A stretch of DNA of 44,190 nt, from positions 1 through 44,190 of the forward strand of contig CADCVU010000204.1 in the NCBI GenBank assembly GCA_902806245.1. Direction: 5' to 3'. The position numbers and the translations under genes are program-made. A model generated the notes under the pieces. That model searched no databases. It saw only the letters and a list, made by a program, of their open reading frames with translations, and was not told where the DNA came from. This DNA comes from an uncultured Solirubrobacterales bacterium. Its GTDB lineage: Bacteria > Actinomycetota > Thermoleophilia > Solirubrobacterales > Thermoleophilaceae. Shown here in pieces: positions 542-43,252 of the stretch (position 1 is the stretch's first letter; every line of letters starts with the position of its first letter).

Positions 542-2338
542 ATGACCGACGGCAGCCTGATCCTCGTCACCGGAGCGCTGCTCGCGCTCGGGATCGCGGC
601 GTCCCTGGCCGCCGGCCGGCTGCGGGTGCCGGGCCTGATCCTCTTCCTCGCGCTCGGCATGGCCATCGGGTCCGACGGTCTGGGGCTGATCGTCTTCGAC
701 GACTTCGAGCTGACACGGACGATCGGCGTGGTCGCGCTCGCGCTCATCCTCTTCGAGGGCGGATTGACCGCCGGTTGGTCGGAGATCCGTCCCGTGTTCT
801 GGCCGGCCTTGTCCCTGGCCACGGTCGGCACGCTGATAACCGCGGGAGTGGTCGGCGTCGCCGCGGCATGGCTGCTCGACCTGCCCCTGCTCTACGGGCT
901 GCTGCTCGGATCGATCGTCTCGACCACCGACAGCGCGGCGATCTTCTCGGTCCTGCGCGGATCGAACCTCAAGCGCCGCATCGCCCGGCTGCTCGAGGCC
1001 GAGTCGGGACTCAACGACCCGGTGGCCATCCTGCTGGTGATCGGCTTCATCGAGTGGATCTCTCAGCCGGACTACGGCCTGGGCGACATGGCGATCCTGT
1101 TCGTGGAGGAGCTCGGGATCGGCGCCGTGGCGGGGGTCGCCTTCGGCTGGTTCTCGGTGACGGCGTTCAAGCGGGTGCCGTTCGTCTCGAGCGGCCTCTA
1201 CCCCGTGGCCTCGATCGCCACCGCGGCGATCGCCTTTGGCGCCGCCGACGTGCTCGGAGGCTCGGGCTTCCTCGCGGTCTACCTGGCCGGCCTGGCCCTC
1301 GGCGGCTCGCGCGTGCCGGCGCGCACGACGATCATCGACTTCCACGCCGGGCTCGGCTGGGTGAGCCAGATCGTCCTCTTCTTCACGCTCGGGCTGCTCG
1401 TCTTTCCGACCCAGCTCGGCCCGGTCGCCGCTCCCGCCCTTCTCCTGGCGGTGGTGCTGGCGGTCGTGGCCCGCCCGATCGCCGCCCTCGTGGCCACGCG
1501 CGTGGGCCGCTTCCCCCCGCGAGAGGCGATCCTGATCGGGTGGGCGGGCCTGCGCGGGGCGATCCCGATCGTCCTCGCCACCTTCCCGGTGATCGCCGAG
1601 ACCCCGCGCGCCGGCGTGTTCTTCAACATCGTCTTCTTCGTGGTCCTGACCTCCACGCTCGTGCAGGGCGCGACCTTCGAGCTGCTGGCGCGCGCGCTGG
1701 GGGTGACCTCGAACGAGCCGGCGCTGCCGCGGCCGCTGATCGAGGTCGGCGCGATCCGCCGCCTCGGAGCGGAAGTCATCGAGTATCCGGTGGGCGAGGG
1801 CGAGGCGGTGGTCGGGCGCGTGGTCAACGAGCTCGGCCTGCCGCGCGACGCGCTCGTGAACGTGCTCGTGCGCGGCGAGGAGGCGCTCCTGCCGCGCGGT
1901 TCGACGCGGATCGAGGCCGGTGACCGCCTGCACATACTCACGCGCGCGAGCGTGCGCGACGAGGTGGAGGCGCTGCGCGTGCGCTGGCGCGACGGGCCGA
2001 TGGAGACTCCTGCGGTCGTCGCGCCCCAGAGCGCCGGGCGCGCCACGATCTTCACGGTCCGCCCATGGGCGCCCGGCGACGGCGACCTCTCGCGGCCCGA
2101 GCGTCTCGGCGGCGTGGCGGTCACCCGGCGCCTGCGCACCCGGCGAGGGCGCGAGGGCGCACTGGTGCTGCTGGAGGACGGGCGCTTCGGCATCACCGGC
2201 GACGGTCTGGTCGCGGTCGGGGGCTCGCGCCAGCTCCTGCGCTACTGCGGCGAGCGGATCCGCCGGGCCAGCGAGCCCGAGGAGCGCGCGTGGTGGCAGG
2301 AGGCGGCGGGGGTGGTCTCTCAGCGGGCGGTGGGCTGA
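542..2338 (+). CDS. Potassium/proton antiporter (CPA family, NhaP2/CvrA-like, TrkA_C-like C-terminus)
   Basis: 598 aa; multi-TM with LRVPGLILFLALGMAIGSDGLG, STTDSAAIFSVLRGSNLKRRIARLLEAESGLNDPVAILL, and a C-terminal RCK_C-like segment. Confidence 0.85.
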   Translation: MTDGSLILVTGALLALGIAASLAAGRLRVPGLILFLALGMAIGSDGLGLIVFDDFELTRTIGVVALALILFEGGLTAGWSEIRPVFWPALSLATVGTLITAGVVGVAAAWLLDLPLLYGLLLGSIVSTTDSAAIFSVLRGSNLKRRIARLLEAESGLNDPVAILLVIGFIEWISQPDYGLGDMAILFVEELGIGAVAGVAFGWFSVTAFKRVPFVSSGLYPVASIATAAIAFGAADVLGGSGFLAVYLAGLALGGSRVPARTTIIDFHAGLGWVSQIVLFFTLGLLVFPTQLGPVAAPALLLAVVLAVVARPIAALVATRVGRFPPREAILIGWAGLRGAIPIVLATFPVIAETPRAGVFFNIVFFVVLTSTLVQGATFELLARALGVTSNEPALPRPLIEVGAIRRLGAEVIEYPVGEGEAVVGRVVNELGLPRDALVNVLVRGEEALLPRGSTRIEAGDRLHILTRASVRDEVEALRVRWRDGPMETPAVVAPQSAGRATIFTVRPWAPGDGDLSRPERLGGVAVTRRLRTRRGREGALVLLEDGRFGITGDGLVAVGGSRQLLRYCGERIRRASEPEERAWWQEAAGVVSQRAVG

Positions 2339-38383: not shown

Positions 38384-39679
38384 CTAAGCGCTCTCCTCAA
38401 CCTCAGCTCGCAGCGGATGACGAAGCGTCCCGAGTGGCGAGCGCCCGGCGAACCATCTGACGCCCGGCGTCGCCGTCACCGAGTGCACGAGCACCGACGC
38501 ACAGATGGCAAGCGTCGCGGCGGCAAAGATCCGCTCCGACTCGGGCACGTTGAAGCGCTCGATGTAGGTCACGTAGAAGACGGCCGCGACTCCTATCGGG
38601 CCGAACCAGCCTAGGAAGGCAGTACCGCGCCTCCCTGTGTCCGAGCCCGCGAGCGCGAGTGGCACCACCGGCGGGCGCCGCACGAGCAACACCCACGCGG
38701 CGAACGCGAGACCCGACACTCCGAGTGCCGCCCACTGCGACCAGGGCAGGATCGCTCCGAGGAAGATGAACACCGGCAGGATCAGGTACTTGCTGACCGA
38801 GTCCTGTACCTGCTCGAGCTGCTCGCGCACCTCCTCCTCAAGCACCGCGGAGAAGAAAATCGCCGCGACGAAGACGGCCAGAATGCCGCTGCCACCGAGC
38901 AAATGGATGAGGCCGACCGTCAGGAGAGCGAGCGAAATCCCGAGACCGATCAGGTTCGTCTCCTCGATTTCCGATCGCCGCAGGCTGAGCTCGGTCAGCT
39001 TCCCGCTCGCGTAGCCAATCGGTGCCCCGAGCGCGACGGCGAGCCCGACTCCCTTTAGCGTCTCGGTCGCCCAATGCCCGAGCGCAGCGCCGACCGGCTC
39101 GGTCAACATGAAGGCGGCGACCAGGACGAAGGGGAGCGCCAACCCGTCGTTGGCGCCAGACTCAAGCTGCAGGGAGCGGCGCAGCCACCGCGGCAGGTTC
39201 TTATCGGCGAGCCCTCCGGTCACCAGGGCGGAGGCGACGACCGGATCGGTCGGCGTGAGAATCGCCCCGAGCAGGAACGCGGCCCAGAACGGAAGGCCGA
39301 GCAGGAGCCAGGCGCCAAGGCCGGTGAGCACCCACATTCCGACCATCCCGACGGTCAGGAGCCCGACAAAGCGTCGGGCGTTGGTGCGCAGGTCGGCCCG
39401 CGTGATCTGAAGGCCGGCGCCCATGAGCGCGAGTGCGAGCGTTACGCGAGCGATCTCCTCGAGGATCCGGCGCTCGTCTCCCTCTCTCGCCGGGTTGAGC
39501 ACGCCGAGGACCTCCGGCCCGAGGACCACTCCAAGCAACAAGGCGATGAGTACGGAGGACAGAAACAGGCGTTTGAGGACCCGCGAGAGCAGCCCGAGGA
39601 CGAGCATCGAGCCACCCACGACGATCAAGGCAGTGTCGAGCGTCACGGGGCCGTGCTTCCCGGTCGACGCCGGGCTCAT
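38384..39679 (-). CDS. CPA1-type Na+/H+ (cation/proton) antiporter
   Basis: LRTNARRFVGLLTVGMVGMWVLTGLGAWLLLGLPFWAAFLLGAILTPTDPVVASALVTGGLADKNLPRWLRRSLQLESGANDGLALPFVLVA. Confidence 0.9.
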   Translation of the reverse strand: MSPASTGKHGPVTLDTALIVVGGSMLVLGLLSRVLKRLFLSSVLIALLLGVVLGPEVLGVLNPAREGDERRILEEIARVTLALALMGAGLQITRADLRTNARRFVGLLTVGMVGMWVLTGLGAWLLLGLPFWAAFLLGAILTPTDPVVASALVTGGLADKNLPRWLRRSLQLESGANDGLALPFVLVAAFMLTEPVGAALGHWATETLKGVGLAVALGAPIGYASGKLTELSLRRSEIEETNLIGLGISLALLTVGLIHLLGGSGILAVFVAAIFFSAVLEEEVREQLEQVQDSVSKYLILPVFIFLGAILPWSQWAALGVSGLAFAAWVLLVRRPPVVPLALAGSDTGRRGTAFLGWFGPIGVAAVFYVTYIERFNVPESERIFAAATLAICASVLVHSVTATPGVRWFAGRSPLGTLRHPLRAEVEESA

Positions 39680-40354: not shown

Positions 40355-41059
40355 ATGCGGGTTAGGCACGAACGCTCGGACGACGACTTCGAGTTCTGGG
40401 TGAGGCACGTGACCGAGCGTGCCGATCCCTTCATGTCGTGGCTTGGAGTGCTCTTCGCTCTGCTTGTCGGCTTCGAGTTCGCCGTGTCGTTGAATGCGCC
40501 CGCGTCGTTCGTGCTCTCCGTGGCCGGTTGGACGATCTGGAGCGTCTTCGTGCTCGAGTTCGTGGCCAAGCTCGCGCTCGCCCCCCGGCGCGGCCGCTTT
40601 CTTCGGCGCCATTGGGTGCAGGCGCTCGCCCTGCTAGTGCCGACCCTCCGGGTCCTCGGCTTCCTGCGACTGATGCGGCTGGGCCGCGCGCTCCCTGCCG
40701 CGCGCGTTCTGTCGTCCTCGTACCGGAGTGTCGGCACCGCGGGCCGGCTGATTCGATCCCGACTCGGTTACCTCGGTGCGCTGACGGTCGTCGCGACCGT
40801 GGCGGTGGCTCAGCTCGCCTACCTCTTTGAGCACGAGGTTCGTGCTGGCGCGGTGCGCTCGTTCGGCGATTCAATCCTCTGGGCTCTCTCGGTGGTGCTC
40901 GCCGGCCAGGGTGACCCGGTCCCCGCCACGCCCGGAGGAAGACTCGTCATGGTTGCTGGCTTCGCGTTCGGAGTCGTCGTCGTCGCCGCTCTCGCCGGCA
41001 CGATCGGCGCCTTCCTTGTCGATGAACGCCGCGAGCGAGCCGAGCAAGAGCGCTCATGA
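40355..41059 (+). CDS. Voltage-gated-cation-channel-like protein with non-canonical pore sequence
   Basis: MRVRHERSDDDFEFWVRHVTERADPFMSWLGVLFALLVGFEFAV...GWTIWSVFVLEFVAKLALAPRRGRFLRRHWVQALALLVPTLRVLGFLRLMRLGRALPAARVL (S4-like) ...FGDSILWALSVVLAGQGDPVPATPGGRLVMV. Confidence 0.75.
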   Translation: MRVRHERSDDDFEFWVRHVTERADPFMSWLGVLFALLVGFEFAVSLNAPASFVLSVAGWTIWSVFVLEFVAKLALAPRRGRFLRRHWVQALALLVPTLRVLGFLRLMRLGRALPAARVLSSSYRSVGTAGRLIRSRLGYLGALTVVATVAVAQLAYLFEHEVRAGAVRSFGDSILWALSVVLAGQGDPVPATPGGRLVMVAGFAFGVVVVAALAGTIGAFLVDERRERAEQERS

Positions 41060-42688: not shown

Positions 42689-43252
42689 TCAACATGTCGG
42701 TGCAGGGTTCTCCCCGCAGACGTCTTCCTCGCTGGGCGTGTCGACCTTCGGTTCCTTCGGTTCCTTCGGTTCCTTGGGTTGCTCCGGCTTCTTAGGTTCC
42801 TTCGGCTCCTCCGGCTTCTCCGGCTCAGGCTCCGGCTCCGGCTCGGGTTCCAGGTCCGGCTCGGGTTCCAGGTCCGGCTCCGGCTCCGGCTCGGGCTCGG
42901 GCTCCGGCTCGGGCTCGGGCTCGGGCTCCGGCTCGGGCTCGGGCTCTTGCGCCTGCTTGCACTGGTCCTTGAACAGCCGCGTGAGGTTGTCGACCCCTCC
43001 CTCCAGCGTCGAGCGTACGTCCGGGTCCACCTCCTCAGGGAGATCCGAGACCTGCCGCTTGAGCTGGCTCAGGGTTGGTCGCGTCCGCTCGCACTCTCCC
43101 TCGCGGACACCCTGCTCGACGGTGTCCAGGTTGCCGACCAGACGCGTCGCGGTTTCAGAAGGGATCTTCTCCCCCCCGGCGCCGCACGCGGCGATGGTCA
43201 GGCACAGCCCCGAGCTCAGAGCTAGTGCGCGAATCCGTCGAAGCGCTCCCAC
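42689..43252 (-). CDS. Lipoprotein with long Glu-Pro/Lys-Pro low-complexity tail
   Basis: GTG start; ALALSSGLCLTIAACGAGG lipobox, helical middle, (EP)n, PDLEPEP and KEPKEPKEP repeats, terminal two-Cys segment EEDVCGENPAPTC. Confidence 0.75.
   Translation of the reverse strand: MGALRRIRALALSSGLCLTIAACGAGGEKIPSETATRLVGNLDTVEQGVREGECERTRPTLSQLKRQVSDLPEEVDPDVRSTLEGGVDNLTRLFKDQCKQAQEPEPEPEPEPEPEPEPEPEPEPEPDLEPEPDLEPEPEPEPEPEKPEEPKEPKKPEQPKEPKEPKEPKVDTPSEEDVCGENPAPTC
42746..42952. repeat. Coding tandem repeat encoding EP/KEP units
   Basis: GGTTCCTTC units and GGCTCGGGCTCC-like units on the + strand. Confidence 0.85.

What the first reader, a model, noticed from the sequence alone, without database searches (positions are those of the whole stretch)
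40355..41059. Voltage-gated-type channel with an AGQGD pore signature instead of TVGYGD
The ORF has S1-S4-like segments (an arginine-repeat stretch RFLRRHWVQALALLVPTLRVLGFLRLMRLGRALPAARVL) and a pore-helix region FGDSILWALSVVLAGQGDPVPATPGGRLVMVAGFAFGVVVVAALAGTIGAFLVDERRE. Potassium channels of this layout carry T-V-G-Y-G-D at the filter. Here the aligned residues are L-A-G-Q-G-D (40901-40915). The GxGDxxPxTxxGR frame is kept, so it looks like a substituted filter and not a broken gene. This could be a channel class with altered selectivity. The gene neighbours a CPA1 antiporter.
Basis: partly seen in the sequence, partly recalled or inferred. Interest (0 to 1): 0.62.

Follow-up and report, generated by a model that had tools for sequence, protein, structure and literature searches.

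The report
Ion channel with rewritten filter loop
An actinobacterium carries a voltage-gated-style ion channel gene whose potassium-selecting filter has been replaced, across a whole clade of related bacteria, by a shorter conserved x-Q-G-D-P-x-P loop; it probably lets several cations through and widens what is known about how such filters evolve, but nobody has measured it.

Summary
The ORF (40355-41059 +, 234 aa) and its AGQGD pore loop are real. It is a six-helix Kv-like protein (Pfam Ion_trans E 1.7e-8; nearest solved sequence KvAP E 2.6e-7). The filter change is not a lone mutation: fifteen orthologues, found only in Thermoleophilia, form one clade (100/99 support with pore columns left out) and none has TVGYGD. 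The conserved motif is A-x-Q-G-[D/E]-P-x-P (Q and G 14/15 each, both P 15/15). The first Gly of "GQG" is present in only 3 of 15, and the loop is shorter than in K+ channels (one residue by sequence; 9 against 11 loop residues in AlphaFold models), so it is not a point-substituted TVGYGD. Sister clades in other actinobacteria have yet other non-GYG loops. The gene is under purifying selection and keeps S4 arginines. In 4 of 15 cases it lies within 2 kb of a CPA-type antiporter; three members also have an adjacent small two-helix gene. Most likely it is a weakly selective cation channel in cation homeostasis (inferred; precedents NirBac, NaKTs). A non-conducting role is not excluded. Resemblance to the AMPA-receptor filter failed a specificity control. 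New variant of a known kind.

The parts
40355..41059 (+). Kv-like six-helix channel gene, 234 aa, xQGDP clade
40424..40585 (+). S1-S2 (residues 24-77); S2 keeps W62, F65, E68 of the charge-transfer pattern
40649..40705 (+). S4 (residues 99-117) with R99, R105, R108, R111, R117
   Evidence: low model confidence here
40760..40831 (+). S5 (residues 136-159)
40862..40903 (+). pore helix (residues 170-183), FGDSILWALSVVLA
40904..40930 (+). filter loop (residues 184-192), GQGDPVPAT; conserved core Q-G-D-P-x-P at 40907-40924
40931..41053 (+). S6 and its cytoplasmic extension (residues 193-233)
38384..39679 (-). CPA-type Na+/H+ exchanger-family antiporter (PF00999, E 1.9e-43), divergent from the channel; homologous antiporters adjoin the channel in G004 and G198

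Best explanation
A tetrameric voltage-gated-type cation channel homologue whose K+ filter has been replaced by a shortened x-Q-G-[D/E]-P-x-P loop. Shown by sequence and monomer model: Kv-like six-helix architecture, retained S4 arginines, and a filter loop that is conserved across a Thermoleophilia clade, shorter than in TVGYGD relatives, and without the threonine and paired glycines of the K+ ladder. Inferred: tetramer assembly; lacking four stacked dehydrated sites, the pore conducts monovalent cations with little selectivity and may be modulated or blocked by divalents at the Q/D ring; it works beside a CPA antiporter (and in some species a small two-helix protein) to adjust membrane potential and Na+/K+ balance.
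For: Family assignment and pore position. Clade of 15 with pore columns left out 100/99, none TVGYGD. Loop of 9 residues against 11 in a folded TVGYGD relative. Filter more conserved than the protein average, 0.77 against 0.60; whole-gene dN/dS about 0.11-0.29. Antiporter within 2 kb in 4 of 15; one-strand antiporter / small genes / channel array in G198. Experimental precedents for rewritten bacterial filters that are non-selective: NirBac (PMC4607889) and NaKTs, filter LPMGNGPLSP (PMC5052707).
Against: No function has been measured. Pairwise dN/dS is higher in the pore segment 169-197 than in S1-S5 or S6 in most pairs, and L081 (HADP) and L087 (QGSP) vary even the core motif, weaker constraint than a strict filter would suggest. 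In the sister SN clade the filter is the least conserved segment. The S3 aspartate is lost. The model is a monomer and S3-S4 is poorly resolved.
Confidence: 0.55

Rival explanations
1. Non-conducting relative: the voltage-sensor/pore scaffold serves as a sensor or as a regulatory subunit of another channel or of the neighbouring antiporter, and the loop is a structural plug.
For: Pore segment less constrained than S4 and the S4-S5 linker, the most conserved parts; drifting or truncated loops in the sister SN and TGQ clades; own genome has other conducting-type channels.
Against: The xQGDP motif is conserved above the protein average, and S6 pore-lining glycines and the pore helix are intact.
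Confidence: 0.2
2. A genuinely selective pore of another kind (divalent or Na+ selective), with D187 as a high-field ring.
For: Acidic residue at 187 in 14 of 15 and Q at 185; rings of acidic side chains set Na+/Ca2+ selectivity in BacNaV/CaV (established knowledge).
Against: L087 has Ser at 187 and a clade member keeps function-agnostic variation (HADP); sequence is unrelated to TLESW-type filters; closest functional precedents are non-selective.
Confidence: 0.12
3. Still K+ selective through an unusual backbone arrangement of G184-Q185-G186-D187, i.e. an ordinary K+ channel with a cosmetic change.
For: The window copy keeps G-x-G-D, and Kv-like kinship.
Against: First Gly kept in 3 of 15 only; T75-equivalent lost; loop two residues shorter than the control.
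Confidence: 0.07
4. Lone mutant, decaying gene or sequencing error.
For: Patchy distribution: 13 of 399 class genomes and none of three congeners; a partial second copy with an in-frame TAG in G004.
Against: 15 orthologues share the motif; dN/dS well below 1.
Confidence: 0.02

Closest known systems
Kv-type K+ channels such as KvAP (VGIC superfamily, Pfam Ion_trans PF00520)
   Same: Six-helix frame, S4 arginines, pore helix, PxTxxGR after the loop; best sequence and fold matches.
   Different: No T-V-G-Y-G; loop shorter; S3 aspartate missing.
NirBac channels (PMC4607889)
   Same: Bacterial K+-channel relatives whose P-loop was replaced while the rest was kept; shown to be non-selective.
   Different: NirBac are Kir-domain 2TM channels with unrelated loops; this one has a voltage-sensor domain and no Kir domain.
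NaKTs of Tsukamurella (PMC5052707)
   Same: Actinobacterial, short Gly/Pro-containing filter (LPMGNGPLSP against LAGQGDPVP); functionally a non-selective, Ca2+-activated cation channel.
   Different: 2TM; its authors found no other channel with that filter; the key Pro63 at the inner end is absent here.
Bacterial TTxGSD/TTVGSE-type 'ion transporter' family (e.g. Sinorhizobium WP_324765488, Gloeothece WP_013334678)
   Same: Same six-helix frame, same one-residue-short filter, about 28-34% identity.
   Different: Keeps TT and one Gly; loop sequence differs. No functional paper found.
Ionotropic glutamate receptor pore (AMPA, MQQGCDISP)
   Same: x-Q-G then D before P, Gly-Arg after it, similar end of the inner helix.
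   Different: Opposite membrane orientation, no ligand-binding domain; profile similarity no greater than for ordinary K+ channels.

Membership tests
Voltage-gated-like ion channel superfamily (Pfam Ion_trans PF00520) | Score above the curated cut-off | tested here: met
   34.4 bits against 25; all 15 clade members match
Voltage-gated-like ion channel superfamily (Pfam Ion_trans PF00520) | S4 with basic residues every third position | tested here: met
   R99, R105, R108, R111 in 13-15 of 15; R102 in 11 of 15 but Gly in the window
K+ channel | T-x-G-[YF]-G filter | tested here: not met
   LAGQGD in the window, A-x-Q-G-[DE]-P in the clade
K+ channel | K+ selectivity | not testable with these tools
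   needs flux or electrophysiology
NirBac | C-terminal Kir domain | tested here: not met
   no Kir domain; 234 aa with only channel matches in Pfam
NaKTs-like | 2TM pore-only subunit with LPMGNGPLSP filter | tested here: not met
   six-helix subunit, LAGQGDPVP
BacNaV / CaV-like | T-x-E/D-x-W type filter | tested here: not met
   absent here; a separate TLENLPD-type gene in the same genome is the BacNaV-like one
CNG/HCN | Cyclic-nucleotide-binding domain after S6 | tested here: not met
   protein ends about 12 residues after the predicted membrane part of S6; no such Pfam match
Ionotropic glutamate receptor | Lig_chan match above cut-off and specific to this clade | tested here: not met
   15.2 bits against 30.8; equally frequent in control groups

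The most novel reading that the evidence does not exclude
The x-Q-G-[D/E]-P-x-P loop is a new class of selectivity filter with a selectivity of its own (for example divalent or Na+), fixed once in Thermoleophilia within a radiation of voltage-sensor-bearing channels that had already given up the K+ filter, and it works as a module with a CPA antiporter and a small two-helix subunit.
Probability: 0.15. Interest if true: 0.75.

Novelty: new variant of a known kind. Interest (0 to 1): 0.5.

Why it matters
Filter sequences are thought to be nearly frozen in the Kv branch: a survey of eukaryotic Kv and CNBD channels found that strong deviations are features of single channels, with metazoan CNG the only clade-level exception (PMC7576140). 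Here, in one bacterial phylum, several related clades (TTVGSE, ASNLVxxPVT, TGQ, xQGDP) keep the same voltage-sensor/pore frame with different loops. That is a natural series from K+ to non-K+ pores, so how a K+ filter is lost and replaced becomes directly testable with small bacterial proteins.

Tried and rejected
Glutamate-receptor kinship: suggested by (Q)QG..D..P and weak Lig_chan matches; rejected because control groups match equally. Lone mutant or pseudogene: rejected by 15 orthologues and dN/dS. Simple Y-to-Q substitution in GYGD: rejected because the first Gly is not conserved and a gap is needed. Phage origin: no tblastn match in phage records. Operon with the antiporter in the window itself: not supported; the genes are divergent with a 675-bp gap and no sigma-70-like promoter was found. 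A first scan of genome contigs with the single sequence found nothing; the alignment query found 10 loci. Literature: the string GQGD with 'selectivity filter' and 'channel' gave nothing, and the TTIGSD/TTVGSE strings gave no channel paper; most subscription papers are not held.

Full report
OBSERVATION. The ORF at 40355-41059 (+) encodes 234 aa exactly as read, with A-G-Q-G-D at 40901-40915. Pfam assigns Ion_trans (34.4 bits, cut-off 25) and Ion_trans_2 (25.9, cut-off 22.5). By sequence the nearest solved structure is KvAP (E 2.6e-7); the alignment needs one extra residue in KvAP within pore helix/filter: DALWWAVVTATTVGYGDVVPATP against DSILWAL-SVVLAGQGDPVPATP. Foldseek on the model also returns Kv4, Kv2, MlotiK1 and KCNQ channels; overall TM-scores are low (0.3-0.4), probably because the voltage-sensor/pore arrangement of a monomer model is unreliable.

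STRUCTURE. The AlphaFold2 model (51-sequence alignment, mean pLDDT 82.2) has helices 9-43 (S1), 48-75 (S2), 136-159 (S5), 170-183 (pore helix) and 193-233 (S6), with the filter loop at 184-192. The pore half is at about pLDDT 90-95; residues 101-140 (S4 and linker) are at 50-66. As a control a TVGYGD relative (L034) was folded: pore helix of 13 residues (150-162), loop of 11 (163-173). The window loop is thus two residues shorter and its pore helix one longer. The threonine of TVGYG is replaced by a non-hydroxyl residue and the first Gly is not conserved, so four stacked carbonyl sites are unlikely. That last step is inference from a monomer model.

CLADE. Close homologues (E < 1e-80) occur in 13 of 399 sampled genomes of the class, in one further genome of the order (G775, two genes), and in 10 named contigs titled Thermoleophilia, Thermoleophilaceae, Solirubrobacteraceae/-ales or Actinomycetota. 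Contig coordinates identify G004, G018 and G019 of the window's family with contigs titled 'Thermoleophilaceae bacterium'. Fifteen distinct sequences align over the full length at 53-68% identity to the window protein. Loop: A183 14/15; position 184 L8 G3 Q2 M1 T1; Q185 14/15; G186 14/15; D187 13 D, 1 E, 1 S; P188 and P190 15/15. Mean identity of 183-190 is 0.77 against 0.60 overall. The exceptions are L081 (HADP) and L087 (QGSP). With pore columns removed the fifteen form one clade (100/99), sister to an 'SN' clade with ASNLVHQPVT-type loops (97/84); with a 'TGQ' clade these 34 sequences group at 99/98. None of the 34 has a GYG filter. Further out lie TTVGSELYPVT-type and TVGYGD channels. The order among those outer groups is not resolved (82/7), so the direction of change (K+ filter lost) is the usual expectation and is not shown by the tree. 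Relatives on Sinorhizobium and cyanobacterial plasmids, two of them annotated 'ion transporter' and 'potassium channel family protein', have TT[IM]GSD[YF]xP loops, also one residue short.

SELECTION. NG86 dN/dS over the gene is about 0.11-0.29 for six pairs, so the genes are maintained; within pairs the segment 169-197 has higher ratios than S1-S5 or S6 in most cases. The motif is conserved, but its surroundings are not held especially tightly. In the SN clade the filter is the least conserved segment (0.48 against 0.68 overall), whereas in the xQGDP and TTVGSE-type clades it is above average. I read this as a pore that lost the K+ filter in a common ancestor and was fixed anew in the xQGDP line. 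A non-conducting role for some of these proteins remains possible.

VOLTAGE SENSOR. S4 carries R99, R105, R108 and R111 (13-15 of 15). S2 keeps W62, F65 and E/D68. The S3 aspartate present in the TTVGSE-type and several TVGYGD relatives (LD) is Q/R/S/A here. Voltage sensing is plausible but may be weakened.

NEIGHBOURS. A PF00999 antiporter lies within 2 kb of the channel in 4 of 15 genes (G000, G004, G198, G339), in differing orders and orientations; expected about 0.1 from antiporter counts, Poisson p 5e-6 (the 2-kb cut-off was set after seeing the data). In G198 the antiporter, a small gene with a lipoprotein-like start, a two-helix protein and the channel follow each other on one strand with overlaps or gaps of a few bases; in G004 the two-helix gene overlaps the channel's stop codon. 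The two-helix family (75-83 aa, no Pfam match) occurs in 14 of 399 class genomes; 7 of its 9 strong carriers also have the xQGDP channel (Fisher p 2e-10; shared ancestry is not corrected for). Elsewhere it lies beside TVGYGD or TVGFGD channels or antiporters. The window's genome has no detectable copy. These links point to cation homeostasis.

FUNCTION. Best reading: a non-selective or weakly selective cation channel. Precedents are experimental: NirBac (PMC4607889) and NaKTs (PMC5052707) have rewritten filters and conduct cations without selectivity. The resemblance to AMPA-receptor QQGCD is attractive but fails a specificity control: Lig_chan matches occur in 11/15 xQGDP, 11/16 SN/TGQ and 12/17 TTVGSE/TVGYGD proteins, and pore-profile scores against GluA2 are similar for xQGDP (14.8 bits), TTVGSE (13.6) and TVGYGD (14.8); what differs is the score against KvAP (18.3, 33.2 and 78.4). 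The window's genome also encodes a BacNaV-like channel (TLENLPD) and a TVGYGD channel, so this gene adds to an ordinary set.

VERDICT. A real, clade-conserved variant of the Kv-like frame with a new loop; selectivity unmeasured. Limits: incomplete metagenome-assembled genomes, Actinomycetota-centred sampling, no cellular protein database, monomer models, and a library without most subscription papers.

Noticed in passing
L077:4346-4597, L081:5387-5638, L084:6717-6944, L019:490-744, L092:1486-1776, L094:1489-1785, L095:1342-1743: A family of small two-helix proteins (75-83 aa core, conserved GITLL..LLSIGVTV...WW.R.L.G) without a Pfam match sits directly beside xQGDP channels, TVGYGD/TVGFGD channels or CPA antiporters in Thermoleophilia; possible channel or antiporter accessory subunit.
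   Followed up: partly
L048-L058, L061, L073 (SN clade); L059, L060, L063, L066, L069, L074 (TGQ clade): Two further actinobacterial clades of Kv-like proteins without any GYG filter; in the TGQ clade the loop is shortened further and in the SN clade the filter is the least conserved part.
   Followed up: partly
L062, L064, L065, L067, L068, L070-L072, L075 (GSE); L012, L038, L040, L045, L047 (GSE2); L103-L107: TTVGSE/TTxGSD-type filters, one residue short and reminiscent of CNG TIGE, occur in at least two separate branches of bacterial Kv-like proteins and on Sinorhizobium and cyanobacterial plasmids; no paper on them was found.
   Followed up: partly
L014, L015, L017, L037, L039, L042, L043, L046: Pore-domain relatives in the same class with a LLTVSSQMPNP-type loop, several apparently two-helix proteins: another non-GYG pore family.
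   Followed up: no
L018/L088 (G004:C1:653011-653487): A nearly identical partial second copy of the channel, 9 kb from the intact one, with an in-frame TAG; duplication remnant or assembly artefact.
   Followed up: no
L001 (G000:C152:3564-4220) and L003 (G000:C226:263-787): The same genome has a BacNaV/CaV-like channel with a TLENLPD filter and a TVGYGD K+ channel.
   Followed up: partly
window 542-2338 (+): A second Na+/H+ exchanger-family antiporter lies at the other end of the same contig (PF00999, E 4.8e-57).
   Followed up: no
window 42689-43252 (-): Secreted or lipoprotein-like ORF with a long EPEPEP/PEPE repeat tract.
   Followed up: no
window 40355-41056: phrog_7872 (unknown function, 254 positions) matches the channel at E 9e-15, so some phages or prophages may carry channels of this type, although tblastn against phage records found none.
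   Followed up: no
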